Numbered from the stretch's first letter, positions 6,995-27,439 are shown. The stretch is 34,938 nt of DNA from Candidatus Peribacteraceae bacterium (GCA_028711345.1 JAQTSK010000013.1:1-34938), one strand, 5' to 3'. Translations and numbers: made by a program. The notes: generated from the sequence alone by a model not told the origin.

Positions 6995-7199
6995 AAATAG
7001 AAGGGGGAAGAATAGAATAACACGCCCGAAATGGGGCGATTCATCAGGTAAAACGCAGGAAGAGAAGTATTCCTTACACAATTTTGGGTGCATTTTAATG
7101 ATTTTATTGATTCTGTCAATGGTTCGCTGGGGATGAACTCACGAATTGGCTGAGATCTCGTCAGCGAATCCTCGGAGATGAGCCGCAATGATCGACTCG

Positions 7200-12774: not shown

Positions 12775-12782
12775 GGAGACGA

Positions 12783-12874
12783 ATGGTTAAATGGTTAAAC
12801 GGTTAAATTGTTGGCAGGCAAGAAACAATGAATGAATGATAGCAATTGAACAATTTAGCAATTTAACAATTTGA
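12783..12874. repeat. inverted pair of octamer arrays between rpsG and rpsL
   Basis: ATGGTTAA ATGGTTAA ACGGTTAA then CAATTGAA CAATTTAG CAATTTAA CAATTTGA. Confidence 0.85.
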
Positions 12875-12889
12875 AAAGAAATAAACTCA

Positions 12890-13315
12890 CTATTTTTTGA
12901 CCTTAGGTTTTTTGGCTCCATAAAGCGACCTTCCCTGCTTCCTGTCGCGCACACCTTCCGTATCCAGTACTCCGCGGACGATGTGGTAACGCACACCCGG
13001 CAAGTCTTTGACGCGGCCGCCGCGGACAAGCACGACGGAGTGCTCCTGCAAATTATGGCCTTCGCCGCCGATGTACGCCGTGATCTCCTCGCCGTTCGTC
13101 AGGCGAACGCGGGCGATCTTGCGGAGAGCGGAGTTCGGCTTCTTGGGCGTCATGGTGGTGACTTTCAGACAGACGCCGCGCTTCTGCGGTGCGCCTGCAG
13201 GCAGACGGACGCGCGTCATGCTGAGCGCGTTCCAAGTGTGCTGAAGATTGGGGGCCTTGGTCCTGCGGGACTGAGAGCGTCGGCCGTGACGGACCAACTG
13301 ATTGATGGTAGGCAT
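12890..13315 (-). CDS. rpsL: 30S ribosomal protein S12
   Basis: [13 protein letters not shown]...[73 protein letters not shown]. Confidence 0.98.
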
Positions 13316-13371
13316 AGTGCGGGCGGGAATGGTAATGATGGATGGTGAGAGAGTAAAGGGAAAACGGCTTG

Positions 13372-13432
13372 GTAGCAGGTAGTAAGTAGTTGGTAGCAGA
13401 GGACGAAACCCTTGCTACCCGCTACTTGCTAC
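13372..13432. repeat. inverted pair of heptamer arrays overlapping the rpoC stop codon
   Basis: GTAGCAG GTAGTAA GTAGTTG GTAGCAG ... TTGCTAC CCGCTAC TTGCTAC; the rpoC stop (13429-13431) is in the last unit. Confidence 0.88.
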
Positions 13433-16400
13433 TTTTTCTTTTTCTTCTCCTCCTCCTCCAGCTCGAACCGCTTGAGGAAGGTTTCGCCTGCGGGAATGAG
13501 ACGACCGATGATCACGTTCTCCTTGAGACCGCGGAGATAGTCGACCTTGCCGGTCGTGGCGGCCTCGACCAAGACGCGGATGGTTTCCTGGAAGGAGGCG
13601 CCTGCGAGCCATGATTCCGTTGCAAGCGAGACGCGGGTCAAGCCGAGGAGCAGCTGCTCGAACGTCGGCTCTTTTTTCTCCTTCTTTCCCTTGGTCTTCT
13701 TCAGCACTCCGACTGCGCGGCGCACATCCGCGATGTCCACGACCTCGCCGGCCAGGAGATCGGTGTCTCCTCCGTCAACGATCCGGACTTTGGAGAACAT
13801 CTTGCGAGCGATGATCTCGAGGTGCTTGTCGTTGATGGTTTGTCCCTGTGATGCGTAGATGTGCTGCACTTCGTGGACGATGTAACTCTGCACGGAATAC
13901 GCGCCCTGCTTCTCCAGCAATTCCTGCAGATTGTAGTGTCCGGCATTCAGCGCCTGTCCCGCCTTGACGAGATCGCCGTTCTTGACGAGCAGTACCTCGC
14001 GACCGACGAACTCGTACGTACGCTCCTGAATGTCCGAGTGACGGACGACGATACGGCTCTCCGTGACCTCAGCCACCTTGCCGGCGATCAACACTTTGAT
14101 AGTGGATTTGTCGGTCACCGCCTTGGCGATGACCATACGCTCCTTCACGGCGTCCCCCTTCTTCACGGTGATCTGATAGCCTGCCGGAACGAAGTAAGAA
14201 TCCTGACCCAGTTCTTCGCCGATGACCTGCAACGTGGTCGTACCTCCTTTGTGGCTGATCTTCACACGTCCCGAGATGTCGGACAACGTAGCGGGCGTCC
14301 GCGGAGGACGCGCTTCGAGGATCTCTTCCACGCGGGTCAGACCTTGGGTGATGTCGGATCCTTCGGCGACTCCTCCCATGTGGAAGGTTCTCATCGTGAG
14401 CTGTGTGCCCGGTTCACCGATGGACTGGGCGGCGATGATGCCGACCGGCGTCCCGATCTTCACGGTCTTGTTATTGGCCAGATCACGACCGTAACACTTG
14501 ATACAGATGCCTCCGTCGGTATGACAGGTAATGACGGAGCGGAGCGTTACGGCATCGATCTTGTGCCGCTGGAACACGGCGATCAGATCCGCATCGATCT
14601 CCTGATTGCGCTTGGCGAGGACCTCTTTGCCGTCCTTGACGTCTTCGCTGAGAGTTCGGCCGAAGATGCGAACTTCGAACTTCTCACCGATACGCTCGGA
14701 CTCGGCGCGGGTGATGACGTGACCGAATGCGGAACCGCAGTCCTGCTCCTTGATGACGATATCCTGCACCGCATCGACGAGACGGCGGGTCAGGTAACCG
14801 GCTTCGGCAGTCTTGAGCGCGGTGTCGGACTTGCCTTTCCGGCCTCCGTGCGTGGCGATGAAGTACTCGAGAATGGTGAAACCTTCCTTCAGGTTGCTCT
14901 GGATCGGCAATTCGATGGTGCGACCCGACGGATTGGCGACCAGTCCCTTCATACCGGCGAGCTGCGTGATCTGCCCCCAGTTACCGCGGGCGCCGGAATC
15001 GATCATGTAGGTGATGCTGTTGCGATCGGCGGCCGTGAAGTGCTTGATCATGGTGGAGGCGATATCGCTCTTGGTCTTGCTCCAGATGCGAATGGCGTGC
15101 TGGTACCTCTCGTCGGCGGTGATCCAGCCCTTCCAGTACTGATTGTTGATCTTGCGGATCTTCTCGTTGGCGTCACCGAGGATCTTCCCCTTCTCTTCCG
15201 GAACGATAATATCGCTCACGGCGATGGAGATGCCGGAGCGTGTGGCATAGCGGAACCCGATGTTCTTGATGTTATCGGCCAGCTGGGCGGTCCGCTCCGG
15301 TCCGACGACGTCGAGTGAACGTGCGATCAGCTTGGAGAGCGACCCCTTCTTCTGCGTCTCGTTAATGCGACCGAGTTCGGGCGGAACCACCTCCTGGAAG
15401 AGGAGGCGGCCGACAGAGGTCTCCACCAACTCATGTTCGCCGTCGGTATCGGGGAGCGGGAAGCGCACTTTGATCTTCGCCTGCATGCTGATGATGTCAT
15501 GCTCGTAGGCGAGGATGGCCTCATTGGAGGAGGCGAACAACATCCCCTCCCCTTTCTCCCCGTCATGGACGTTGGTGAGGTAATAACACCCGAGCACCAT
15601 GTCCTGCACCGGCGTGATGATCGGTTCACCGGCAGAGGGTTTGAGCACGTTCTTGGATGCGTTCATGAGCTCGCGGGCCTCCTTCTGCGCCTGCTCGGAG
15701 AGCGGAACGTGCACCGCCATCTGGTCTCCGTCGAAGTCGGCGTTGAACGCGGTGCAGACCAGCGGGTGCAACTGGATGGCCATCCCTTCGATGAGCCGCG
15801 GCCGGAACGCCTGGATACCCAGACGGTGCAGGGTGGGCGCACGGTTTAGGAGCACGAACTTGTCCTGAATGACTTCCTCCAAAATGTCCCACACCCGCTT
15901 GCTGCCGTCCATGACCATGCGCTCGGCGCTCTTGACGTTGTGGGCAAGTTCATCGCGGATCAGGCGTCCGATGACGAACGGCTTGAAGAGCTTCATGGCC
16001 ATCTCCTTGGGCAAACCGCAGGAATCGATGGGGAGATCCGGCCCGACGACGATGACGGAACGGCCGGAGTAGTCCACGCGCTTGCCAAGGAGGTTCTGAC
16101 GGAAGCGACCCTGCTTTCCTTTCAACATGTCGGAGATGGAACGCAGCTTGCGTCGGTCGCCGGCGGTGAAGAGGGCCTTCCCGGCACGTGCTGAATTATT
16201 GAGGAGCGTATCAACCGCCTCCTGCAGCATGCGTTTTTCATTGCGGTTGATGACTTCCGGTGCGCCGATGCTCATGAGCTTCTTGAGACGGTTGTTCCGG
16301 TTGATGACGCGTCGGTAGAGATCGTTCAAGTCGGATGCGGCGAACCGTCCGCCGTCCAACTGCACCATCGGACGGAGGTCCGGCGGGAGAATGGGGAGAC

Positions 16401-17301
16401 GCGTCAGGATCATCCACTCGGGCTTGATGCCGGCCTGCTCCAACGACTGCACGAGCTTGAGCCGCTTCATGATCTTCTTGAGACGCTGACCGCTGCTCTT
16501 CTGCCGCTCATCGAGCAAGGTCTCCGCCAGCACTTTGAAGTCAATGGCGGCGATGATCTCGCGCAGCGACTCGGCACCCGTTCCCGCACGGAACAGGTGT
16601 CCGAACTTCATGTTCATCTCGCGGAACTTGAGCTCGGAGAGCACGGACCCGACGTGCAGGTTCGCCACATCCTCCAGCGCGTCCTTGTGGTTGAGCTTGA
16701 GAGCCTCCAGCTTCTCGGCCGTTGCCGAGTCCAGCGCATCCAGCTGATCGCGCGTGGGCTTGCCTTCCTTGAGCCGCTTCACCTCATCGTCGTGCTCGCG
16801 CTTGATCTGGTTGCGACGTGCTTCGTGCTCCTGCTTCAGCTCCTTCTCGGCGGTTTTCCGGCCTTCGTCATCGACGGTCACGACGATGTACGCGGAGAAG
16901 TACACGATCTGCTCCAGCGTCTTGATGGAGAGATCCAACAGCAATCCCAAGCGCGACGGCGAGCTGCGGAGGAACCAGATGTGCGTCACCGGAACGGCGA
17001 GGTTGATGTGCCCCATCCGCTCGCGACGGACAATGGAACGCGTGACTTCGACACCGCACTTCTCGCACACGACGTTGTTGTAGCGGATCCCTTTGTACTT
17101 GCCGCAGAAACACTGGAAGTTCTTGGTAGGTCCGAAGATGCGCTCGCAGAAGAGTCCGTCCGGCTCCGCACGCTGCGTGCGGTAGTTGACGGTCTCCGGC
17201 TTGGTCACTTCTCCGCGTGACCAGCCGAGGACATCCTCGGGGCTGGCGACGGAGAGCGCGACGGCATCGAACGAATCGGAAGTGCGGGGGATGAACGCCA
17301 T
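13429..17301 (-). CDS. rpoC: DNA-directed RNA polymerase subunit beta'
   Basis: GLFCERIFGPTKNFQCFCGKYKGIRYNNVVCEKCGVEVT, NADFDGDQMAVHVPLS, GEPGTQLTMRTFHMGGVA. Confidence 0.99.
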   Translation of the reverse strand: MAFIPRTSDSFDAVALSVASPEDVLGWSRGEVTKPETVNYRTQRAEPDGLFCERIFGPTKNFQCFCGKYKGIRYNNVVCEKCGVEVTRSIVRRERMGHINLAVPVTHIWFLRSSPSRLGLLLDLSIKTLEQIVYFSAYIVVTVDDEGRKTAEKELKQEHEARRNQIKREHDDEVKRLKEGKPTRDQLDALDSATAEKLEALKLNHKDALEDVANLHVGSVLSELKFREMNMKFGHLFRAGTGAESLREIIAAIDFKVLAETLLDERQKSSGQRLKKIMKRLKLVQSLEQAGIKPEWMILTRLPILPPDLRPMVQLDGGRFAASDLNDLYRRVINRNNRLKKLMSIGAPEVINRNEKRMLQEAVDTLLNNSARAGKALFTAGDRRKLRSISDMLKGKQGRFRQNLLGKRVDYSGRSVIVVGPDLPIDSCGLPKEMAMKLFKPFVIGRLIRDELAHNVKSAERMVMDGSKRVWDILEEVIQDKFVLLNRAPTLHRLGIQAFRPRLIEGMAIQLHPLVCTAFNADFDGDQMAVHVPLSEQAQKEARELMNASKNVLKPSAGEPIITPVQDMVLGCYYLTNVHDGEKGEGMLFASSNEAILAYEHDIISMQAKIKVRFPLPDTDGEHELVETSVGRLLFQEVVPPELGRINETQKKGSLSKLIARSLDVVGPERTAQLADNIKNIGFRYATRSGISIAVSDIIVPEEKGKILGDANEKIRKINNQYWKGWITADERYQHAIRIWSKTKSDIASTMIKHFTAADRNSITYMIDSGARGNWGQITQLAGMKGLVANPSGRTIELPIQSNLKEGFTILEYFIATHGGRKGKSDTALKTAEAGYLTRRLVDAVQDIVIKEQDCGSAFGHVITRAESERIGEKFEVRIFGRTLSEDVKDGKEVLAKRNQEIDADLIAVFQRHKIDAVTLRSVITCHTDGGICIKCYGRDLANNKTVKIGTPVGIIAAQSIGEPGTQLTMRTFHMGGVAEGSDITQGLTRVEEILEARPPRTPATLSDISGRVKISHKGGTTTLQVIGEELGQDSYFVPAGYQITVKKGDAVKERMVIAKAVTDKSTIKVLIAGKVAEVTESRIVVRHSDIQERTYEFVGREVLLVKNGDLVKAGQALNAGHYNLQELLEKQGAYSVQSYIVHEVQHIYASQGQTINDKHLEIIARKMFSKVRIVDGGDTDLLAGEVVDIADVRRAVGVLKKTKGKKEKKEPTFEQLLLGLTRVSLATESWLAGASFQETIRVLVEAATTGKVDYLRGLKENVIIGRLIPAGETFLKRFELEEEEKKKKK

Positions 17302-17309
17302 ACGAGGGG

Positions 17310-17455
17310 AAGGTAAGGAAAGTAAGGTAGGTAATGAAGGTAAAAAAGGTAAAGCGGGAGGATTCCGAGGAGTCCGATGATTCCGAGGAAACCGAGGAAC
17401 GACGTCTGTTCGTCGGACTCTTCGGACTCTTCGGCTTCCTCGGTTTCCTTGTCCT
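17310..17455. repeat. nonamer array with inverted arm (locus A)
   Basis: 9-bp register from 17310: AAGGTAAGG AAAGTAAGG TAGGTAATG AAGGTAAAA AAGGTAAAG CGGGAGGAT TCCGAGGAG TCCGATGAT TCCGAGGAA ACCGAGGAA; inverted arm CGTCGGACT CTTCGGACT CTTCGGCTT CCTCGGTTT from 17411. Confidence 0.9.
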
Positions 17456-17569
17456 TATTCACATACGAAACATCGCAGCGCCCCTGCAGTGCGATCGTCT
17501 GAATCGCGCGGGGTGCTCCGATGATGGGGGGATCTTACGTAAAAGAAGGCGGGGATGCAAATGGAAATT

Positions 17570-17612
17570 GAGGATTCCGAAGAAACCGAGGAGTCCGAAG
17601 AGTCCGAGGAAA
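17570..17612. repeat. nonamer array, single arm (locus D)
   Basis: GAGGATTCCGAAGAAACCGAGGAGTCCGAAGAGTCCGAGGAA. Confidence 0.88.
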
Positions 17613-17658
17613 AATCTCCCGGATCATCCGTACGATTTCTATGATTGGAATTGATTGA

Positions 17659-17874
17659 TCATATTGCTCCACACTCTTCTGTCCTCGTACCAACAGAACG
17701 CAATTCTCCGCCGGGTTCACCTTCCCAAACATCAGTCTTTTCTTCTTGGGGAATAGAACGCATCAACTCCTTAAATCTTTCTTGTTGCTCAGGACTAAGC
17801 CGCCTGATCGCATCGTAAACATTTTTCGGAACTCCCTCCCCCTCGCCAAGATCTTCAGTGAAATGATTTTCCAT
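17659..17874 (-). CDS. small hypothetical protein
   Basis: MENHFTEDLGEGEGVPKNVYDAIRRLSPEQQERFKELMRSIPQEEKTDVWEGE; TAGAAT 8 nt upstream of the ATG. Confidence 0.5.
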   Translation of the reverse strand: MENHFTEDLGEGEGVPKNVYDAIRRLSPEQQERFKELMRSIPQEEKTDVWEGEPGGELRSVGTRTEECGAI

Positions 17875-18040
17875 ACAAACGCATTCTACATCAATGGTAA
17901 GTAGAGTTGTCAAATTTTTCAATGTGTACGCAACCCCGCACTCACTCAATGCTGAGTTCCTACCTTCCTACCTTCCTCCTTCCTGCCTTTCCTGCCTTTC
18001 CCTTGTCCTCCGAAGCCTTGGCGAAGGAGGATGCCCTTCC

Positions 18041-19240
18041 CTACAGCCCCACCCGCGCCAGCACGGCGGACCAGAGCGAGAACCGGCGGCGGCCGACGAG
18101 CAGCTTACTGATGCTCATGTCGTAGCGGAGGGCTCTGCGCATGCGCCTGAGCAACTTCCGGTGCCCCATGCGAATCAGCACATTCGCTTCACCCAACGTA
18201 TCCAGCGACGAGGCGATCAAGTTCGCGGAGCCGATGAAGAGTTTCCGCCGATCGACCAGGAGCAGCTTGGCATGCAGATTGCGAGGGAACGTGAAGATGC
18301 GGATGTTTCGCGGCTCACCCTGTGACATCAGCCGATCAACGGCCTGCAGGTTCGCATGACCGTGTACGTCCGGCGCCTCGGGAAGAATCAGCGTGACACG
18401 AACGCCTTCATGACTTCTGCGTGCCAGTACTTCAATGGTCTCCGGATCCGAAAAATAGGAATGTTCCAGCAGAATCGATGAGCGCGCGTCGAGCAGCAAT
18501 TGCCTCAGCTTCGGCCGCACGTTCATCCGTCCTCCCGGTGCATTGAGGATCAGTTCTACGGTTCCGTTGACTGACAGGATACTGCGACCCTGCAGGAACG
18601 CCTCCACCCAGTACCTCCCCCGCAGCTCCACGAAGTAATCATGCCACTCCAGATACTCCGTGCCGACATTCATGCCTCCGAGCAGCAAAACTTTTCCGTC
18701 GACAACGAATATCTTCGCGTGCTCACCGCCGGAAAAGTGACGCACGGCGATGGCAGGATGACGCCAGAAGCGATCCCACGGAGCGGATGCCGATCGTCGC
18801 GTCCCGACGAAATCACTCGCAAATTCGAAACCGTCGCCCATCGCATCCTTGGTGATATCCACCTGCACACCGCGATCCGCCGCTTCGACCAATGCGGCTG
18901 CAAGCTCCCGACCGAGACGGTCATCCCTCCAGATGAACATCTGAATCACGATGCTCCGCTGCGACTTCCGGATCAACTGCCGGAGCCGGGGAAAGAATTC
19001 CCGACCGTCCACCCAGATCTTCACCTTCGATTGGGACCACCCTCGCAGAGAACGCGACGAGTGCAGCAATCCCTCCACCCGAAGCCGGAAGAGCATGCGG
19101 GTCCGCAGGAGAGAGAGCACCCAACGCTCCCGGCGCATGTAGCCGTTCCATCCACGCTTCAGAGACTGCCAGAACCGAAGTGACAGGCACATCCGCAGCC
19201 GACCGATCACCCGCCGACCAAGATTGGAATGTCCTCCCAT
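18041..19240 (-). CDS. phospholipase D / cardiolipin synthase family protein
   Basis: two HKD motifs: HAKIFVVDGKVLLLGGMNVGTEY and HAKLLLVDRRKLFIGSANLIASSLD. Confidence 0.92.
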   Translation of the reverse strand: MGGHSNLGRRVIGRLRMCLSLRFWQSLKRGWNGYMRRERWVLSLLRTRMLFRLRVEGLLHSSRSLRGWSQSKVKIWVDGREFFPRLRQLIRKSQRSIVIQMFIWRDDRLGRELAAALVEAADRGVQVDITKDAMGDGFEFASDFVGTRRSASAPWDRFWRHPAIAVRHFSGGEHAKIFVVDGKVLLLGGMNVGTEYLEWHDYFVELRGRYWVEAFLQGRSILSVNGTVELILNAPGGRMNVRPKLRQLLLDARSSILLEHSYFSDPETIEVLARRSHEGVRVTLILPEAPDVHGHANLQAVDRLMSQGEPRNIRIFTFPRNLHAKLLLVDRRKLFIGSANLIASSLDTLGEANVLIRMGHRKLLRRMRRALRYDMSISKLLVGRRRFSLWSAVLARVGL

Positions 19241-21818
19241 ACGCCAATGGTACGATATCCGCGCTCGTCGGTCAGATCATTTCCGCCTTTCATTCCTTTT
19301 CCTTTCTTCCCTTCCTGATTTCCTCGTGGACGCCTGCGCCATCATCTCCGCCAACCACCTCGGTCTCGCTCGCGTCATGCTGACGTCATACAGACGGCAT
19401 AATCCCGATGGTCGTTTCTTCCTGCTGCTGCTCGATGAACCGCTTCCCTCCGACGATCTCGGGGGATGGACGATCATCCGTGCCGAAGAGCTGGAACCGG
19501 CCGATCTTCCGGCACTGCGGATGCTGTACACGGCCTACGAGCTCAGCATGGCGTTACGACCGGCGTTCCTCCTCCACCTGATGCGCCGATGGAACGCAAA
19601 CACGCTGGTGTTCGCCGATGCGGATCTGTACTTCACCGGCGGCATCGATCACGTGAACGCGCTCCTGGAACGTCATTCCTTCATTCTGACTCCTTCGTAC
19701 CTGACACCGATTCCGGAGGACGGTCGCCACCCCACGGACCGCCAATTCCTCGCCGCCGGCATCTACAATGGAGGGTTTGCAGGATGCAGGAAGTGCGACG
19801 AAACGCTGGCGATGCTGACATGGCTGAACGAGCGGCTGAAGAAGTACTCTTTCCTGCGACCGGAAGACGACATGTTCGGAGATCAGCGCTGGCTGGATTT
19901 GGTGCCGAGTTTCATGAACGATCTCCTCATTCTGCGCGACACGACAACGAACGCCGCATACTGGAACCTCCACGAACGGATCATCACGCAATCCGGAGGC
20001 CGGTACTTCGTGAACGGGCAGCCGATGGCCTTCTTCCACTTCAGCGGCTTCAAATGCGGCTCACCGCCGACGCTGTCCGTTCATCAAACCAGAACGGATC
20101 CCGGTCATCACCCTGCGCTGATGCAACTGTGTCTGGAGTATCAGGAACACCTCCGCGAGGTGAACCATGAAGAACGCAAGCGTCAGCCCTATGCATTCGA
20201 CCGATTCGAAAACGGTGCGGGTATCACACCGGTGATACGGCGCGTATACGAGGAAATCGACGGTCCGAAACGATTCCCCCACCCGTTTGCAACCGCAGAC
20301 GATTCGTTCTACTCGTGGCTCACGACACCGGAGATGCGCAACGGAAAACCGCTTCCCATCAACCGTCTCCACCGCACGATTCACCGCATGAGCATCGAAG
20401 CGTCCGCACGCTTCCCGAAACCGGCATCCGCCGATCTCAGACTATTCGCACTCTGGCTTCTGAACGCTCATTCGCGTGTTCTGCCACTGGATCCGATCTT
20501 CCTCGAACCGCTGGATGTGTTCGTCCGACGATCCGGAGGGGAGCCGAGGACGAACCGGATGTGGCGCTGCATCGATCGTCGACATTCCTTTGCGCCCTAC
20601 CAACTCCTCTGCCGTATCGTGAAGCGCATCATCGGCAAGAAACGCTACGACGCGCTGAAGCCGCGTAGCGAATTCCCGACCATCCCGCGCTTCCTGCTCA
20701 GAACGCACCGCACCGGACAAGTCGGCGGCGTGAACATCCTTGCGGGAATCGGCGCGGAGAACGGCGTCGGCGAAGCGGTGCGCGGGCACTTCGCGGCATG
20801 CCGGGCAGCGGATCTTCCCGTCGCCGTTTCGAATGCTCACACGGCACCCGGAAGGGAACGGATCGTGCTGCCGGAGCAAGTGCAGGATGAGTGCATGCCC
20901 TTTGCAACGACGTTGATGGAAGGAGGACTCCACGACCTGCACCGGGGACTTCAGATGCTCCCGCGAGGAGGAACCGGCTCGCGCGTGATCGGACATCTGG
21001 CGTGGGAGCTGGAAACGATACCGGAGAAAACGGTCGGATTCCTCAATCAGTTCGATGAGCTCTGGGTGGCGAGCCGATTCATTCGCGACGGCGTCTCCGA
21101 TCAACTTTCCATCCCCGTCCTCACGATGCCCTACGTCGTGGACGTGTCCGGCGTTTCGCAAAAATCCCGGAAGGATTTCAACATTCCGGAAGATACGACC
21201 GTCTTCCTCTTCGTCTTCGATTTCTACAGTCACATCGAGCGGAAGAATCCGCTGGGTCTTCTTCAGGCGTTCCGGAAGGCGTTCGGCGATGATCCAAGCA
21301 AGCTGCTTCTGATCAAACACAGCCACGGAGAAGCGTTTCCAGATCAGTGGCAACAACTGCAGGATGCGGCATCCGCTTCGGCAAACATCCGCCTCATGGG
21401 AACGTACATTCCCCGTCCCGATCTCCTCGGACTGCTGCGATGCGCCGATGCGTACGTCTCGCTGCACCGCGCGGAAGGATTCGGCCTGACGATGGCGGAG
21501 GCCATGGCGCTGGGCGTACCGGTCATCGGAACGGAGTACGGCGGATCGACAGAGTTTCTGACTGACAGAACAGGATTCCCGATTCCGTTCTCTCTTCAGA
21601 CGATCAGCCGGACCATCGACCCGTACGAGAAGGGAATGAGATGGGCGGAACCGGATCTCACTGCGGCGGCGGAAGCGATGCGATCAATCATCTCGAAGAA
21701 AGCCGAAGCCGAGACTCGCGCCGCACGGGCGAAGACATTCATTGAACGGAACTTCAGTGCGAAGAATATCGGTCAACGTATGAAGAAGAGACTTGAGCGT
21801 CTCGAAACCACCCGCTAA
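19224..21818 (+). CDS. two-domain glycosyltransferase (GT-A-like N-terminus, GT4-like GT-B C-terminus); start uncertain
   Basis: N-terminal VDACAIISANHLGLARVMLTSYRRHNPDGRFFLLLLDE ... NTLVFADADLYFTGG (DxD); C-terminal RCADAYVSLHRAEGFGLTMAEAMALGVPVIGTEYGGSTEFL. A GTG at 19326 is an alternative start. Confidence 0.88.
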   Translation: MECPPIRQWYDIRARRSDHFRLSFLFLSSLPDFLVDACAIISANHLGLARVMLTSYRRHNPDGRFFLLLLDEPLPSDDLGGWTIIRAEELEPADLPALRMLYTAYELSMALRPAFLLHLMRRWNANTLVFADADLYFTGGIDHVNALLERHSFILTPSYLTPIPEDGRHPTDRQFLAAGIYNGGFAGCRKCDETLAMLTWLNERLKKYSFLRPEDDMFGDQRWLDLVPSFMNDLLILRDTTTNAAYWNLHERIITQSGGRYFVNGQPMAFFHFSGFKCGSPPTLSVHQTRTDPGHHPALMQLCLEYQEHLREVNHEERKRQPYAFDRFENGAGITPVIRRVYEEIDGPKRFPHPFATADDSFYSWLTTPEMRNGKPLPINRLHRTIHRMSIEASARFPKPASADLRLFALWLLNAHSRVLPLDPIFLEPLDVFVRRSGGEPRTNRMWRCIDRRHSFAPYQLLCRIVKRIIGKKRYDALKPRSEFPTIPRFLLRTHRTGQVGGVNILAGIGAENGVGEAVRGHFAACRAADLPVAVSNAHTAPGRERIVLPEQVQDECMPFATTLMEGGLHDLHRGLQMLPRGGTGSRVIGHLAWELETIPEKTVGFLNQFDELWVASRFIRDGVSDQLSIPVLTMPYVVDVSGVSQKSRKDFNIPEDTTVFLFVFDFYSHIERKNPLGLLQAFRKAFGDDPSKLLLIKHSHGEAFPDQWQQLQDAASASANIRLMGTYIPRPDLLGLLRCADAYVSLHRAEGFGLTMAEAMALGVPVIGTEYGGSTEFLTDRTGFPIPFSLQTISRTIDPYEKGMRWAEPDLTAAAEAMRSIISKKAEAETRAARAKTFIERNFSAKNIGQRMKKRLERLETTR

Positions 21819-21821
21819 CCA

Positions 21822-21917
21822 CTGCTCACCACCCGCTTCCCACTCGTGTTCCGCGGGAAGCATCCCGCTCCCAATCAATGAAAGCTAACCGCTGCTCGCC
21901 ACTTGCTACCCGCTCAT
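21822..21917. repeat. two direct heptamer arrays flanking a short hairpin
   Basis: CCACTGC TCACCAC CCGCTTC CCACTCG and CCGCTGC TCGCCAC TTGCTAC CCGCTCA. Confidence 0.7.
21853..21868 (+). terminator. short hairpin after the glycosyltransferase gene
   Basis: GCGGGA-AGCA-TCCCGC; no T-tract. Confidence 0.35.
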
Positions 21918-21919
21918 TC

Positions 21920-21935
21920 GCAGGAAGAATCCTGC
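21920..21935 (-). terminator. short hairpin directly after the stop of the 118-aa gene
   Basis: GCAGGA-AGAA-TCCTGC, 1 nt past the stop codon on the - strand. Confidence 0.35.
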
Positions 21936-21936
21936 A

Positions 21937-22293
21937 TTATTTTGTGGCTCCTCCGATATCCTTGAACAACCTCTCGAACGAACCCTCGTACCGCTCCAGT
22001 GCGCTCCGCAGGGTGTGCATTTCCACCTCCGTCAGGGACACGGTCGATGAGACATTGAGGAGGTGATCTCTCTTGACGACGCCGGCGACGGCGACCTCCT
22101 GATCCGTGACATTGACCTGCAGCACGATGAACGCGCCGCAACTCTCGCACTTGAGCTGGAGAAGCATGATGTTCTCCTCAGCGACTTTCACGGCCGGAAA
22201 ATCGACCGGCACTTTCGTTCCACACTGCGGACAGCGCACCTGTTCGCGAATGCGGCTTAATATTACGTGAAGGGAATGCGGGTTGACGTCCAT
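21937..22293 (-). CDS. zinc-ribbon hypothetical protein
   Basis: VRCPQCGTKVPVDF ... LKCESCGAFIVLQV (two CxxC pairs). Confidence 0.75.
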   Translation of the reverse strand: MDVNPHSLHVILSRIREQVRCPQCGTKVPVDFPAVKVAEENIMLLQLKCESCGAFIVLQVNVTDQEVAVAGVVKRDHLLNVSSTVSLTEVEMHTLRSALERYEGSFERLFKDIGGATK

Positions 22294-22455
22294 GCATCAC
22301 AGTGTAGCAGAAAACCGGCAGTGTTTGATTTGACAGAACAATATTTGAAGTTCTCGCGCTTGGAAACATGCACCCAACTTGCTTTGCTTCATGCTCGCGG
22401 TAAATGTCCATGCGAAGTTCCCGACTGACGATGGCGAACAAATCGGATGAACGGC

Positions 22456-22461
22456 TAGAAT
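22456..22461 (+). promoter_or_regulatory. -10-like hexamer for a possible leaderless transcript
   Basis: TAGAAT, 6 nt before the ATG at 22468. Confidence 0.4.
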
Positions 22462-22467
22462 GATCGC

Positions 22468-23178
22468 ATGCTCCCATCCTCCACCAAGCGGACATCCATC
22501 AAAAAATCATCAAAACGATCTGCCTCCCCGCGGAAGATCGTTTCCACGAAGCGCAGTAAACGATCAACGCGTGCGGCCGCACCTGTCCCACGGAAACGGA
22601 TTGCCACGAACATGAAGCCTGCAGTGGTGACGGCACTTCCTTCGAAGCGGAGGTCGCTGCTGGCGTCGCTCGGCTTTCAAGTGTTCATCGCCGGATCGGC
22701 GGCAGTCGTTCTGCTGGCTCTGGGTGTCGTCGGGCAGGGATTGTTCGCAACACACGGCAGCCAGGCGGCGGATACTCCTCCCGCGACCGTCGGACTGGAT
22801 CACTCTTCGCCGCTCGCGCTCTCGTTCGTGATCGCCCGTAAAGAACTGGCGGGCTACGTGAACATCACCAATGACTCTCCGGACCCGATCCGCGTGTCCC
22901 TCCCCTCGACGTGGCAGCGGGTGGAAGTCCGCGGTGCCGCGCTGACCGACTTCCCGGCGGACATTCCTGCGCCCGATGTCGTCCGATGGACCATCCCCGG
23001 ACGCGCCGGCATTCGTTTGGTCCTGAGCGCCGTGCCATCGAGCGTCCACTTCGATTCCGTCGCCGCCAGTTCCGCAGCCGTCACGGTGAAGTCCATCGAT
23101 CTCACCACCGAACAGATCCGGACGAATGTCCTGCTCCTCAAAGAGCGGGCGACGACGGGGCTGTGGAATGATGAATGA
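22468..23178 (+). CDS. single-pass membrane hypothetical protein with Lys/Arg/Ser-rich N-terminal tail
   Basis: basic N-terminus, TM LLASLGFQVFIAGSAAVVLLALGVVGQGLFA, then an extracytoplasmic domain. Confidence 0.75.
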   Translation: MLPSSTKRTSIKKSSKRSASPRKIVSTKRSKRSTRAAAPVPRKRIATNMKPAVVTALPSKRRSLLASLGFQVFIAGSAAVVLLALGVVGQGLFATHGSQAADTPPATVGLDHSSPLALSFVIARKELAGYVNITNDSPDPIRVSLPSTWQRVEVRGAALTDFPADIPAPDVVRWTIPGRAGIRLVLSAVPSSVHFDSVAASSAAVTVKSIDLTTEQIRTNVLLLKERATTGLWNDE

Positions 23179-23187
23179 TGATGAAAG

Positions 23188-23343
23188 AAGGATTTCGAGG
23201 AAACCGAGGAGTCCGAAGAGTCCGACGAACGTTTGCTGTTCCACCATCCAAGGAACGGATATTCTTCACAGCCGAACGTGATTCTGGTGTTCGACAGATG
23301 TTCCTCGGAATCGTCGGTTTCTTCGGACTCTTCGGTTTCTTCA
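23188..23343. repeat. nonamer inverted pair with ~70-nt spacer (locus B)
   Basis: arm 1 AAGGATTTCGAGGAAACCGAGGAGTCCGAAGAGTCCGACGAAC; arm 2 TTCCTCGGAATCGTCGGTTTCTTCGGACTCTTCGGTTTCTTC. Confidence 0.88.
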
Positions 23344-23388
23344 TCTACACTCTTTCCGATTCCAGTTACCCCCGATTACTCTTCCATC

Positions 23389-24291
23389 ATGCTCATCCTA
23401 CCGATCACAACACGGAGACTGAAGTCCGGAGATGATCTGGCTGCCATCCTGCATGCGACGGGGATGATCGAAGCGGGCGATATCGTGGTCATTTCATCCA
23501 AAGCCGTCGCGACCGTTGAAGGATCATCCATCGATCTCAGATCAAAAAAACCGGTTAATCGTGCGGAGGAACTCGCGAAGATCTGCCATCAGAATCCGCT
23601 TTTCACACAAGCGATTCTCGACGAAACCGAACGGCTGAACGGCGACGTTATCGGAACCTGCCCGTGGACGCTGCTCACATCACTCAAGCCAAAGGGAATG
23701 AAAAGCGGAAGAATCCTGTGCCCCAACGCGGGGCTGGATCAGTCGAACGTGGAAAAAGGATACGCCATCGGATGGCCGGTGGAGCCGGTGGAGTCGGTGA
23801 GAAGATTGAGAAAAGAACTGGAGACTGTGGGGAGGATTCCGAAGAAACCGGGGAGTCCGAAGAATCCGACGAACAGTCGATATTCCTCGGTTTCATCGGA
23901 ATCTTCGGATGCCTCGGGATCCTTCCGAATCGCCATCATTCTCACCGACTCCTGCTGCCATCCGACGAGAGCGGGTGTCGTCGCATTCGCACTGACCTGC
24001 GCAGGCATCGATCCTGTCCGGAGCGAAGCGGGGAACCGAGATCTCTTCGGAAGACCGCTGCAGTTCACGACGGAAGCCGTTGCCGATCAGCTGGCGACGG
24101 CGGCGAATGCCGTGATGGGCAATGCGGCGCAAGCGACGCCGGCGGCAATCATCAGAGATCACGGCATCGCATTCTCGGATTTCTGCGGGTGGGTGGAGGG
24201 GATCGAGGAAAAAGATGATTTGTTCGAGGAACTGTTCAAACCGATTCATATGAAGGGCAAAAAGGTAAAACGGAATGAAGGCAAAAAGTAG
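23389..24291 (+). CDS. cofE: CofE-like (coenzyme F420-0:L-glutamate ligase family) protein with repeat-derived insertion
   Basis: MLILPITTRRLKSGDDLAAILHATGMIEAGDIVVISSKAVATVEG ... CPNAGLDQSNVEKGYAIGWP ... IAIILTDSCCHPTRAGVVAFALTCAGIDPVRSEAGNRDLFGRPLQFTTEAVADQLATAANAVMG. Confidence 0.82.
   Translation: MLILPITTRRLKSGDDLAAILHATGMIEAGDIVVISSKAVATVEGSSIDLRSKKPVNRAEELAKICHQNPLFTQAILDETERLNGDVIGTCPWTLLTSLKPKGMKSGRILCPNAGLDQSNVEKGYAIGWPVEPVESVRRLRKELETVGRIPKKPGSPKNPTNSRYSSVSSESSDASGSFRIAIILTDSCCHPTRAGVVAFALTCAGIDPVRSEAGNRDLFGRPLQFTTEAVADQLATAANAVMGNAAQATPAAIIRDHGIAFSDFCGWVEGIEEKDDLFEELFKPIHMKGKKVKRNEGKK
23831..23928. repeat. nonamer inverted pair inside the cofE-like gene (locus C)
   Basis: GGAGGATTCCGAAGAAACCGGGGAGTCCGAAGAATCCGACGAAC / ATTCCTCGGTTTCATCGGAATCTTCGGATGCCTCGGGATCC. 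Confidence 0.88.
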
Positions 24292-24335
24292 CCTTTTGCC
24301 CTTTTGCCCTCTTGGCCTCTTGCCTTACTCTTCCC
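24251..24335. repeat. octamer inverted pair spanning the cofE stop codon
   Basis: GGGCAAAA AGGTAAAA CGGAATGA AGGCAAAA (agtagcc) TTTTGCCC TTTTGCCC TCTTGGCC TCTTGCCT. Confidence 0.8.
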
Positions 24336-24337
24336 CC

Positions 24338-24967
24338 ATGAACTTCCTCGCCCTCTCCTCCTCCCGCGGCACGACGTTTCAGGCGACGCTGGACCGCATC
24401 GCCGACGGATCGCTGAAATCCAAATGCATCGGACTGATCACCGATTCTCCCGACCGCGGTTGCATCCAAAAAGCCAAGGCTGCGAATATTCCAGTGGTGA
24501 TTGTGGACAAGAAGCCCGATGAACCCCGCGAGGATTTTGACAAACGTTTGCAGCAAGCGATTCTCCAACTCTGCACACAACCAAAAACCAAAAACTTGAA
24601 ACCTGAAACCGGCGCCATCGTGGCGTGCATGGGCTGGCTCTGGATCCTCTCTCCGTGGTTCATCCGTCAATTCCCGAACCGAATCCTCAACGTCCATCCG
24701 GCTCTCCTGCCGAAATACGGCGGCAAGGGCATGTTCGGTCATCACGTTCACGATGCGGTGCTTGCGGCGAAAGAGAAAGAAAGCGGCATCACGATCCATT
24801 TGATGGACGAAGGTGTGGACACGGGAAAAATCCTGCTGCAAAAATCCTGTCCGGTATTGCCTGATGACACCGCTGCAACGTTGCAGGCCAGAGTGCAGGA
24901 GCTGGAGAAAAAATACTATCCGAAGCTTTTACAAATGATCGACGAAGGATCAGTCAATCTGGAGTAA
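24338..24967 (+). CDS. purN: phosphoribosylglycinamide formyltransferase (PurN-like)
   Basis: SSSRGTTFQATLDRI ... ACMGWLWILSPWFIRQFPNRILNVHPALLPKYGGKGMFG..VHDAVLAAKEKESGITIHLMDEGVDTGKILLQ. Confidence 0.9.
   Translation: MNFLALSSSRGTTFQATLDRIADGSLKSKCIGLITDSPDRGCIQKAKAANIPVVIVDKKPDEPREDFDKRLQQAILQLCTQPKTKNLKPETGAIVACMGWLWILSPWFIRQFPNRILNVHPALLPKYGGKGMFGHHVHDAVLAAKEKESGITIHLMDEGVDTGKILLQKSCPVLPDDTAATLQARVQELEKKYYPKLLQMIDEGSVNLE
24579..24613. repeat. heptamer array inside purN
   Basis: AACCAAA AACCAAA AACTTGA AACCTGA AACCGGC. Confidence 0.85.
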
Positions 24968-25297
24968 CCGTTACTCGTTGGCTCGTTATACGAGATTAAT
25001 CCTCTTCGGGTTTAATTCCCCGCAGCTTGCTGCGCTTCCGCTTAAGGTGGGCTGGTTCAAGGAATGACTCCGTAGATACCGCGTCAGCTTGCTGCGCGGT
25101 ACATCATTTTGAATGCTACCGTAGCTGCGGTTCGACCTTCGACAAGCTCAGGTCGCCCTGAGGAATTCGAAGGGCGAAAACCGCAGCGGCGGCGATTTTC
25201 GAATCGCCGCTGCGGAGATAAAAATTCAAATCAGGTTAATTTCGTATTACTCGTTTCGATCAATCGAGCAACGAGAACGTTTCGAGAAACGAGCAAC
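24968..25297. repeat. composite palindrome island between purN and the FNR-like gene
   Basis: CCCCGCAGCTTGCTGCGC (25018-25035); TACCGCGTCAGC-TT-GCTGCGCGGTA (25077-25101); CTTCGACAAGCTCAGGTCGCCCTGAG (25137-25162); CCGCAGCGGCGGCGATT..AATCGCCGCTGCGG (25181-25215); flanked by inverted CGTT/ACGAG-type words. Confidence 0.85.
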
Positions 25298-25301
25298 AGT
25301 A

Positions 25302-26021
25302 TCAAATATAGCCTTCCCCATGCACATTCGCCTTCGGCATCTGCAGCGTCTCGATGCAGAGCTTCTTCGTATCTGCCAACATGGCCGGTGAACCGCAGAG
25401 GAAGATCTTCGTCTGAGCGGGATCTTTGATCAAATCCGGGAGAATCGCCTGCACCCTGCCCTTCAGCCCCGTCCAATCGGAACGTGGCGCACTCAAGGTC
25501 GGATGGAAACGGAAGTTGGAATGTTTGCGTGCGAGCTCATTGAATTGATCCGTCCAGAACAGATCTTCGCGATTGCGGACGCCGAAGACGAGATCCATCC
25601 GCGCATCCGTCGTCCGATGGTCCAGACACGACACAAGGTGCGACCTGAGCGGCGCCACGCCGCTGCCTGTGCCGACGAAGACATAGTGACCGCCGCTCTC
25701 GGGCGTGAGCGTGAAGAGTCCCAGCGCTCTCCCCATGCCGACGATGGATCCCTCAGCCAGAACTTCCGCCACCCAGCGGCTCGCACGACCTCCGGGTTTC
25801 AGCTTGATCACGAACAGGAGATCCTTCTCCTCCGGAGCGGATGCGATGGAGTACGCCCGCGGCTGGAGGTCGGCGGGATTGTCCACGAGCGGGACATCGA
25901 AGAGAACGAACTGGCCGGCTTTGTAGGAAAAACCCTCGGGCTTGGTCAGCACGATTTCATACACATCCGGAGCAAGGAGGACATTCTTCTTGCAAGTGAC
26001 GAAGTAGGCGGGAGGAGACAT
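25302..26021 (-). CDS. FAD/NAD(P)-binding oxidoreductase, ferredoxin-NADP reductase family
   Basis: AGQFVLFDVPLVDNPADLQPRAYSIASAP ... YVFVGTGSGVAPLRSHLVSCL ... KIFLCGSPAMLADTKKL; no PyrK-like C-terminal Cys cluster. Confidence 0.9.
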   Translation of the reverse strand: MSPPAYFVTCKKNVLLAPDVYEIVLTKPEGFSYKAGQFVLFDVPLVDNPADLQPRAYSIASAPEEKDLLFVIKLKPGGRASRWVAEVLAEGSIVGMGRALGLFTLTPESGGHYVFVGTGSGVAPLRSHLVSCLDHRTTDARMDLVFGVRNREDLFWTDQFNELARKHSNFRFHPTLSAPRSDWTGLKGRVQAILPDLIKDPAQTKIFLCGSPAMLADTKKLCIETLQMPKANVHGEGYI

Positions 26022-26174
26022 GAGGGAAATGTATTGAGGTAATCCGATTCAGATTCCAAGTTTGTCAGAAATGAGCGTCATCCGAAAGATTCAATGATAC
26101 TTTCCGAGTCTATTCCCTGACTGCAATATCGTCCCTCTCCCCTGAGCCTTATCCAGTCCCTCCCTCTCCTTCAT

Positions 26175-26209
26175 CCTCTCCCTCCCCGCGCGACGCCGGG
26201 AGGGAGAGG
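26175..26209. repeat. hairpin with 12-bp perfect stem upstream of the FNR-like gene
   Basis: CCTCTCCCTCCC (26175-26186) / GGGAGGGAGAGG (26198-26209). Confidence 0.88.
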
Positions 26210-26296
26210 AAACATCCTGCATCTGTTTTGCCAATCGATCCCGAAAATCCCGACTCTGATTCGTACATGACTTATCACTCACCAAATCTCGACTGC

Positions 26297-27439
26297 TCAC
26301 TGCTTTCTCATCACCCCCAAAAACTCATCAAACAGATACCCCGCATCCTCCGGCCCCGGCGTCGCCTCCGGATGGAACTGCACCGAGAAGAATCTGCCGG
26401 ACTCATGCCTGATTCCTTCCACAGACTGATCATTCGCATTCGTAAACCACACATGCCAACCCTGCGGCAGCTTCTTGGCATCGACCGCGAATCCATGGTT
26501 TTGCGAGGTGATGATGCATCGCTTCCCGTCTGCTCCACGCTTCCCGCTTATCGCTTCCCGCTCTTCGATACACGGCTGATTCGCCCCCCGATGTCCGTAC
26601 TTCAGCTTGTACGTGTCGCCACCGACAGCGAGCGCAAGGAGCTGATTCCCGAGACAGATGCCGAATGTCGGAATGTCCTTGGCCAGCGCATACCGCATCT
26701 GCTCGATGGTCGCCGTGCATTTCTTGGGATCACCCGGACCGTTGCTCACGAACACGCCGTCATATGTAAGGTTCGATGATTTGAGATCGTAGTTCCACGG
26801 CACACGATGCACCGTCACTCCCCTCCTCAGCCACGAACGGAGGATGTTCCGCTTGATGCCGCAATCGTAGGCGATGATCGATGCAACCGGCTTGCTGCCG
26901 CCCGTCGGCTGGTACGTGATCGCTTCCTTGCAGCTGACTTCGGCGACAAGGTTGTCTTCGTTTGGATCTGGGATCGTTCTGATCGCTGATCGCTGATCGC
27001 TGATCGCTGCGGAATCATCCGCGATGATTCTGCCCAGCATCACACCCGTCTCCCTGAGCTTCTTCGTCAGCGCCCGCGTATCAATTCCCGAAATCCCCGG
27101 AATCCCGTGCTTCACCATCCAGTCATGCAGTGAGCTCTTGGCATTCCAGTGACTGAAGTCGCGGCTCTCCTGACTCACAATGATGGCGCGCACGTGGATG
27201 TTCTCGCTCTCGAAAAACTTCGAAAATCCCCACTCGTTCATCTCCTCCGACGGAACGCCGTAGTTGCCGATGAGCGGGAACGTGAAGACGAGGATCTGTC
27301 CGCGGTAGCTGGGGTCGGTCATGGATTCCGGATAGCCGACCATGCCGGTATTGAAAACGACTTCGCCGTCGGTGTCTTTGGCTGCGCCGAAGGATTGGCC
27401 GGAGAAGGTTGTGCCGTCGGCGAGGATTAATGATGCCAT
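26297..27439 (-). CDS. carA: carbamoyl-phosphate synthase small subunit
   Basis: LILADGTTFSGQSFGAAKDTDGEVVFNTGMVGYPESMTDPSYRGQI ... GVFVSNGPGDPKKC ... TFGICLGNQLLALAVGGDTYKLKYGHRGANQP ... ITSQNHGFAVD ... SVQFHPEATPGPEDAGYLFDEFL; start MASLILADG at 27439. Confidence 0.95.
   Translation of the reverse strand: MASLILADGTTFSGQSFGAAKDTDGEVVFNTGMVGYPESMTDPSYRGQILVFTFPLIGNYGVPSEEMNEWGFSKFFESENIHVRAIIVSQESRDFSHWNAKSSLHDWMVKHGIPGISGIDTRALTKKLRETGVMLGRIIADDSAAISDQRSAIRTIPDPNEDNLVAEVSCKEAITYQPTGGSKPVASIIAYDCGIKRNILRSWLRRGVTVHRVPWNYDLKSSNLTYDGVFVSNGPGDPKKCTATIEQMRYALAKDIPTFGICLGNQLLALAVGGDTYKLKYGHRGANQPCIEEREAISGKRGADGKRCIITSQNHGFAVDAKKLPQGWHVWFTNANDQSVEGIRHESGRFFSVQFHPEATPGPEDAGYLFDEFLGVMRKQ
26520..26565. 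repeat. heptamer array inside carA (site 2)
   Basis: CGCTTCC CGTCTGC (tcca) CGCTTCC CGCTTAT CGCTTCC CGCTCTT. Confidence 0.82.
26981..27008. repeat. perfect 7-bp x4 tandem repeat inside carA (site 1)
   Basis: GATCGCT GATCGCT GATCGCT GATCGCT. Confidence 0.95.

What the first reader, a model, noticed from the sequence alone, without database searches (positions are those of the whole stretch)
12783..27008. Unifying hypothesis: STRR-like 7/8/9-mer arrays colonising intergenic and coding DNA
Heptamer (13372, 21822, 24579, 26520, 26981), octamer (12783, 24251) and nonamer (17310, 17570, 23188, 23831) arrays occur within ~14 kb, often as inverted pairs. Established parallels are the heptameric STRR sequences of heterocystous cyanobacteria and RPEs of Rickettsia. 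The combination of variable unit length, inverted pairing and in-frame incursion into housekeeping enzymes is what I do not recognise as described. A templated or slippage-based replication mechanism is conceivable.
Basis: inference. Interest (0 to 1): 0.85.

Follow-up and report, generated by a model that had tools for sequence, protein, structure and literature searches.

The report
Quantised 7/8/9-base repeat blocks, inverted pairs
A bacterium of the candidate phyla radiation is peppered, across its genome, with short blocks of about four and a half imperfect copies of a 7-, 8- or 9-letter DNA word, usually as mirror-image pairs and sometimes in frame inside essential enzymes; the same kind of element was described for one word in Xanthomonas and explained by G-quadruplexes, which the words found here mostly cannot form.

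Summary
Degenerate 7/8/9-mer arrays are real (none in shuffles), genome-wide (28-46 per 100 kb) and absent or rare at periods 10-12. Four rules emerged. (1) Quantum: 57 of 87 heptamer and 35 of 66 nonamer arrays have 4-5 units, and isolated 2-3-copy precursors are almost absent. (2) Each unit is an invariant core plus 2-3 freely varying phases, the same at independent loci (nonamer GAnGAnnCC). (3) Neighbouring arrays are inverted (30:0), always close, with the G-rich arm 5' (28:2 here, 18:3 in relatives, 19:3 in other phyla). (4) Arms share the core but not the variable letters, so they are not fold-back copies. Orthologous sites show whole-block gain and loss, and unit replacement with the core kept. 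At least ten conserved enzymes carry arrays in frame. The closest known thing is the Xanthomonas GGGAATC heptamer (four units, core plus variable positions, convergent pairs; PMC4692102). The 8- and 9-mer pairs behave like RPE/REPIN-type dispersed palindromes. No reverse transcriptase or transposase tracks the arrays; MutS is missing throughout the family and SbcD almost throughout the class. Best reading: blocks dispersed as units, then concerted core-anchored turnover. The generator is unknown.

The parts
12782..12872 (.). octamer inverted pair (TTAAATKG family) between rpsL and rpsG; inner segment TTGTTGGCAGGCAAG resembles the conserved inner motif of the octamer family
   Evidence: (z -3.0)
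13371..13434 (.). heptamer GTAGYNR inverted pair abutting the rpoC stop codon, between rpoC and rpsL
   Evidence: z -5.3; the same unit recurs at other loci of the genome, reversed-pattern control 0
17308..17353 (+). nonamer array of the GGTAA type just upstream of the rpoC start
17358..17449 (.). nonamer palindromic element, arms (GAnGAnnCC)x4.5, short loop
   Evidence: z -5.0
17570..17611 (+). third nonamer arm (single)
17957..18001 (+). octamer TTCCTACC array followed by a nonamer TTTCCTGCC array
21806..21915 (.). weak, strongly degenerate heptamer-like stretches; no hairpin
   Evidence: z -0.5
23196..23342 (.). nonamer inverted pair with a 73-nt loop, between ORF 22468-23178 and the F420-ligase-like gene
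   Evidence: z -6.9
23775..23799 (+). nonamer GCCGGTGGA array inside the F420-ligase-like gene
23831..23930 (.). nonamer palindromic element inserted in frame in the F420-ligase-like gene (about residues 198-231)
   Evidence: alignment to relatives and to solved structures breaks exactly there; fold z -4.3
24254..24324 (.). octamer GGCAAnAR inverted pair that contains the stop codon of the F420-ligase-like gene
24579..24610 (+). heptamer array in frame in purN (QPKTKNLKPETG, extra relative to solved PurN)
26520..26562 (-). heptamer array (AAGCGGG/AAGCGAT) in the NQPCIE loop of carA
26979..27009 (-). perfect heptamer array (AGCGATC) in the interdomain linker of carA

Best explanation
The window carries members of a genome-wide population of STRR-like elements: blocks of about 4-5 tandem units of 7, 8 or 9 nt, each unit an invariant core plus 2-3 free positions, standing alone or as a convergent inverted pair (G-rich arm 5', C-rich arm 3') that can fold into a long imperfect hairpin. 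Shown: the architecture, the copy-number mode, the pairing polarity, the core/variable design, whole-block presence and absence at orthologous sites, and unit replacement with the core kept. Inferred: blocks enter a site as a whole (not by growth from two copies), survive where a hairpin or a short peptide is tolerated (gene ends, surface loops), and are then kept uniform in the core by core-anchored misalignment and exchange between units, while the free positions drift. The 8- and 9-mer pairs, whose inner loop motifs recur at different loci, are dispersed palindromic families that behave like RPE/REPIN elements. Lack of MutS and of SbcCD in this lineage plausibly lets such degenerate inverted arrays persist. 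What writes or moves the blocks is not identified.
For: Window arrays against shuffles. Genome density and period spectrum 7, 9, 8 with none at 10-11 in the first census and almost none later. Copy number: 57/87 heptamer and 35/66 nonamer arrays have 4.x units; perfect heptamer arrays of 3 or more copies are never isolated stubs and never exceed about 5 copies. Heterogeneity of mismatches by phase: 271 against 192 sd 7 for heptamers, 503 against 342 sd 10 for nonamers. Inverted against direct neighbours 30:0; polarity 28:2, 18:3, 19:3. Arms alike in core (0.98) but not in variable positions (0.50, against 0.53 between pairs). Orthologous turnover: CarA loops in 30 genomes, nearly every genus with a different array; G026/G050 intergenic pair GTGAATA versus GTGAAAA; G020/G047 nonamers with changed free positions; G000/G001 AGCGATC versus AGGGATC; clean presence/absence of a pair in G013 versus G044. 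F420-ligase empty sites. Recurrent inner motifs of octamer pairs in two genera. MutS: none in f1 apart from one weak match in G017, present in 14 of 23 sampled genomes of other families; SbcD over cut-off in 1 of 59. Independent parallel in Xanthomonas.
Against: No target-site duplication was found, and no mobilising enzyme was identified. Heptamer pair loops are unrelated to each other, so dispersal by copying is not shown for heptamers. Core conservation could also be plain selection. The copy-number mode for degenerate arrays is partly shaped by the detection threshold, although the perfect arrays show it too. In other phyla the same heptamer cores form long perfect arrays, as slippage predicts, though that search required at least five cores. 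Density differs greatly among genera that all lack MutS.
Confidence: 0.5

Rival explanations
1. The arrays are classical non-autonomous mobile palindromes (REPIN/RPE/MITE-like) moved in trans by a RAYT-type transposase or a nuclease such as DUF559, and only look tandem because the arms carry sub-repeats.
For: Discrete nonamer and octamer elements with recurrent inner motifs, in-frame insertion with empty sites, five Y1_Tnp matches in the genome, DUF559-like ORFs commonly flanked by another palindrome family.
Against: Y1_Tnp count does not track array density (rho 0.25, p 0.2); none detected in array-bearing G013, G014, G028, G029 and G030; the RAYT genes of this genome are not closely flanked by arrays; too many different cores; variable phases saturated while the core is intact; no target duplication seen.
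Confidence: 0.25
2. Ordinary replication slippage: 7-9 nt is the duplex length held by the polymerase, so loops of that size form most easily, and loss of mismatch repair lets them stay.
For: Period limited to about 6-9; MutS absent in the family; long perfect heptamer arrays in other phyla; the polymerase-footprint idea is quoted in PMC4692102.
Against: Copy number peaks at 4-5 with hardly any isolated two- or three-copy precursors and no long perfect heptamer arrays here. Slippage gives neither inverted pairs (30:0) nor their polarity. Loops of 7-9 nt are poor mismatch-repair substrates anyway (general knowledge).
Confidence: 0.15
3. The arrays are functional RNA or DNA structures (terminators, mRNA 3'-end stabilisers, G-quadruplexes or protein-binding sites) and the core is kept by selection.
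For: Core nearly invariant; strong predicted hairpins; enrichment outside ORFs (24 of 29 pairs and 67 of 115 singles, against 25-29% for random placements); a pair kept at an orthologous site with changed units.
Against: Only one window pair coincides with a terminator-like site, and such sites are no commoner than in shuffles. Enrichment near stops and near starts is similar and modest. Most units have no G-tracts. No covariation between arms. Many arrays sit inside enzymes.
Confidence: 0.1

Closest known systems
GGGAATC heptamer repeats of Xanthomonas (Rehm et al. 2015, PMC4692102)
   Same: Heptamer; positions 1-4 and 6 conserved and the others free; most arrays have four units; 70-75 cases of two sites in convergent orientation close together; mostly intergenic; extensive length and sequence variation between two species at the same positions.
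   Different: One G-quadruplex-capable unit there; here many cores, lengths 7, 8 and 9, mostly without G-tracts, and array insertions in conserved enzymes. That undercuts G4 formation as the general cause of the four-unit mode.
Heptameric STRR / GGGGAYT repeats of heterocystous cyanobacteria
   Same: Degenerate tandem heptamers, dispersed, intergenic.
   Different: Few paired repeats in Nostoc (PMC4692102), long perfect arrays; no 8- or 9-mers that I recall. The original STRR papers were not available here.
TAACTGA repeats of Beggiatoaceae, Cyanobacteria and Bacteroidetes (MacGregor 2015, PMC4679880)
   Same: Heptamer direct repeats, patchy across distant phyla, some within ORFs, no mechanism known.
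   Different: One unit, largely unpaired, in Beggiatoaceae mostly just before start codons.
Rickettsia palindromic elements (RPE)
   Same: Palindrome inserted in frame in protein genes (nonamer element in the F420-ligase-like gene). Comparison from general knowledge.
   Different: Arms made of degenerate nonamers; no sequence comparison with RPEs was made.
REP/REPIN palindromes and RAYT (Di Nocera et al. 2013, PMC3733652)
   Same: Short palindromes, often as inverted dimers, some intragenic; Y1_Tnp genes present in this genome.
   Different: No GTAG/CGTC tag except that one heptamer core happens to be GTAG; no arrays closely flanking the RAYT genes.
Borg tandem repeats (PMC9879509)
   Same: Fast-evolving tandem repeats, also in ORFs, arising independently (abstract).
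   Different: Direct repeats on archaeal extrachromosomal elements; the abstract mentions neither convergent pairs nor a 7-9 nt class.

Membership tests
Xanthomonas-type heptamer repeats | tandem heptamer with conserved core and free positions | tested here: met
   (the open AATN position is nearly always T or G in the listed f1 matches); also true at 8 and 9 nt
Xanthomonas-type heptamer repeats | mode of four units | tested here: met
Xanthomonas-type heptamer repeats | convergent inverted pairs | tested here: met
Xanthomonas-type heptamer repeats | G-quadruplex-capable unit (GGG tracts) | tested here: not met
   most units (AATKGAN, GTAGYNR, AGCGRNM, GAnGAnnCC) lack GGG tracts
Cyanobacterial STRR | degenerate dispersed heptamers | tested here: met
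   similar arrays seen in Oscillatoria loci L203 and L222
Cyanobacterial STRR | named STRR unit sequences | not tested
   original unit list not available in the paper library
RPE | palindromic element in frame inside an ORF with an empty site in relatives | tested here: met
   nonamer element in the F420-ligase-like gene
RPE | sequence homology to RPE families | not tested
   no RPE sequences were fetched
REP/REPIN | GTAG or CGTC tag at one end of a palindrome | tested here: not met
   nonamer and octamer arms have other sequences
REP/REPIN | association with RAYT | tested here: not met
   no arrays closely flanking RAYT genes; density does not track Y1_Tnp count
MITE / transposon | target-site duplication | tested here: inconclusive
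   none evident at the few clean sites, but relatives are too diverged for a firm answer

The most novel reading that the evidence does not exclude
A single, undescribed repeat-writing process common to many bacterial phyla produces blocks of 4-5 units of 7-9 nt with a fixed core and random filler positions, and lays the second block convergently downstream so that the G-rich arm is always 5'. STRRs, GGGAATC, TAACTGA and the arrays here would all be its products.
Probability: 0.2. Interest if true: 0.9.

Novelty: new variant of a known kind. Interest (0 to 1): 0.62.

Why it matters
Heptamer excess in bacteria has been noted for years without an explanation. The unit quantum, the core-plus-filler design and the G-rich-first pairing are simple rules, testable on any genome, and they speak against both plain slippage and G-quadruplex selection. 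The arrays also rewrite surface loops of housekeeping enzymes (CarA, CarB, GuaA, PurN, HMG-CoA reductase, UvrC) between genera, a source of coding novelty and of annotation error in CPR genomes.

Tried and rejected
Fold-back copying of one arm into the other: rejected, variable letters are no more alike within than between pairs. Compensatory covariation: not seen. Reverse transcriptase link: one weak, split RVT_1 match. RAYT link: no correlation and no closely flanking arrays. Intrinsic terminators: at shuffle level. Arrays flanking a cargo gene: no excess of inverted over direct pairs beyond 100 nt. MutS loss as sole cause: suggestive, but density varies widely among MutS-less genera. SbcD loss does not discriminate, since it is absent almost throughout the class. 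Literature searches for CPR short tandem repeats found nothing relevant.

Full report
Check of the observation. In the window, self-matches at lags 7, 8 and 9 give 15 high-scoring segments and dinucleotide shuffles give none. The window is contig C42 of a 1.77 Mb, 93-contig genome. In 539 kb of the same genome there are 196 arrays of period 5-12: 80 heptamers, 35 octamers, 58 nonamers, none of period 10, one of 11 and four of 12. On stretches not chosen for arrays the density is 28-46 per 100 kb. Two single-contig genomes of the same family have 10-12 per 100 kb, other genera up to 84 on small samples, and two genomes of another family almost none.

Anatomy. Four regularities stand out. First, copy number: after relaxed extension 57 of 87 heptamer arrays and 35 of 66 nonamer arrays hold four to five units; perfect heptamer arrays of three or more copies never exist as isolated stubs, never exceed about five copies, and isolated perfect duplications are near shuffle level except for a small excess of 2.5-copy heptamers (13 against 1). 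Octamers peak lower, at 2-4 units. Second, unit design: mismatches concentrate in fixed phases. The nonamer is GAnGAnnCC with the fixed positions nearly invariant; heptamers are GTAGYNR, AGCGRNM, AGGTnnT, AATKGAN. With the fourth position left open in a search of the class, the listed family matches carry almost only T or G there. Third, pairing: neighbouring arrays within 150 nt are inverted in 30 cases and direct in none; beyond 100 nt the excess is gone. The G-rich arm is 5' in 28 of 30 pairs here, 18 of 21 in relatives and 19 of 22 in loci from other phyla. About half of the pairs here belong to one nonamer family and are not independent, but the ten or so unit families seen here agree in direction, with one reversed pair in the AAT family. 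Fourth, the two arms share the core but not the free letters (0.50 within pairs against 0.53 between, 401 of 500 permutations at least as high), so one arm is not a copy of the other.

Two grades of element. Octamer pairs share inner sequence beyond the arrays (TTGTTCGCAAGCG...CGCTTGCGAACAA), also with G022 of another genus. Nonamer pairs share a short degenerate centre (about GAACArTCGATTGTTC). These look like dispersed palindromic families. Loops of heptamer pairs are unrelated. The nonamer core pattern was found only in this family: 119 three-unit windows here, 29 in G014, a few in five other f1 genomes, none in the other Patescibacteria searched, with the reversed control near zero. Heptamer arrays with the AGCG core occur in many phyla, there often long and perfect.

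Evolution at orthologous sites. In carA, three surface loops hold a different array in nearly every genus: ISDQRSA, VISHKSEV, PLPTTHYPLPT, KLTIDNGQLTID, KDSEDSKDSKD and others, mostly 28-35 nt. The sister genome G001 has other units in the same loops (AGGGATC against AGCGATC) and a third array where this genome has none. An intergenic pair in G026 and G050 is kept, with units GTGAATA and GTGAAAA. The carA nonamers of G020 and G047 keep GAnGAnnCA while the free positions differ. A whole heptamer pair just after a stop codon in G013 is absent from G044. In the F420-ligase-like gene the nonamer palindrome is an in-frame insertion; G022 carries one at the same site, G024 a low-complexity acidic/serine stretch, and most genera have the empty site. 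Other conserved enzymes with in-frame arrays are PurN, CarB, PurP, GuaA, HMG-CoA reductase, an RsmB/F methyltransferase (a whole pair), UvrC, GHMP kinases and glycosyltransferases.

Genome context. Arrays prefer non-coding DNA: 24 of 29 pairs and 67 of 115 singles lie outside ORFs of 150 aa or more, against 25-29% for random placement; closeness to stops and to starts is raised about equally (crude ORF calling, no gene finder). Pairs fold strongly, but terminator-like sites are at shuffle level. MutS is absent in the family apart from one weak match in G017, and present in 14 of 23 sampled genomes of other families. SbcD is over cut-off in only 1 of 59 genomes. Reverse transcriptase: one weak split match. 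RAYT-type transposases: five matches here, but no relation of count to density (rho 0.25, p 0.2) and no arrays closely flanking them.

Interpretation. Growth by slippage from two copies does not predict a fixed copy number without intermediates, nor inverted pairs with a polarity. A classical transposon does not predict saturated free positions beside an intact core, nor dozens of cores. The reading that fits best is that blocks arrive as wholes at tolerant sites (shown by empty sites for pairs and for the nonamer insertion, inferred for single heptamer blocks) and are then kept uniform in the core, either by misalignments that need the core to prime or by selection. The generator is unknown. 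Lack of MutS (which also blocks exchange between diverged sequences) and of SbcCD (which cuts hairpins) would help such arrays persist; that is inference from known functions.

Comparison with the known. The Xanthomonas GGGAATC repeat shares the heptamer length, conserved positions 1-4 and 6, the four-unit mode and convergent pairs (PMC4692102). Its authors linked four units to G-quadruplexes; the same mode with units lacking G-tracts argues against that as the general cause. TAACTGA repeats (PMC4679880) and cyanobacterial STRRs are further cases of the kind. The finding is therefore a new variant of a known kind, in a new lineage, with three unit lengths and with rules that look general.

Noticed in passing
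L181 (G036) about 7715-8178: The F420-ligase-like gene of G036 carries, at the same loop that holds the nonamer palindrome in this genome, an in-frame DUF559/Vsr-like nuclease domain flanked by CCTCCCCC...GGGGGAGG palindromes; the family name rests on my reading of the motif, no Pfam scan was run on it.
   Followed up: partly
L033, L048/L124, L115, L121, L141, L157: Homologues of that nuclease are repeatedly flanked by CCCTCACCC...CCTCTCC / GGAGAGG palindromes, on both sides as terminal inverted repeats in L033; it may be the partner of that widespread palindrome family.
   Followed up: partly
window 26161-26221: CCCTCTCC...CCCCGCGCGACGCCGGGAGGGAGAGG palindrome of the type that flanks the DUF559-like genes.
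   Followed up: no
window 25101-25180: TTCGACAAGCTCAGG...CCTGAGGAATTCGAAGG palindrome, REP-like, within an intergenic stretch rich in short hairpins.
   Followed up: no
window 24965-25290: Further degenerate heptamer-like stretches (TTACTCGTTGGCTCGTTA ... AACGAGCAAC) facing each other between purN and an oxidoreductase gene; not scored by the scan.
   Followed up: no
family f1: MutS_V absent from all sampled genomes of the family except a weak match in G017, while most other families of the class have it.
   Followed up: partly
G040 C14 and C20: Two carA copies, each with about 85-90 extra bases in the interdomain linker.
   Followed up: no
G088 (family f2): Long perfect AATTGAG arrays at several loci, unlike the short blocks of family f1.
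   Followed up: no
window 506-7093 (-): 2195-aa protein with dockerin, DUF11 and DUF4215 matches and an acidic hexamer repeat at 2711-2838.
   Followed up: no
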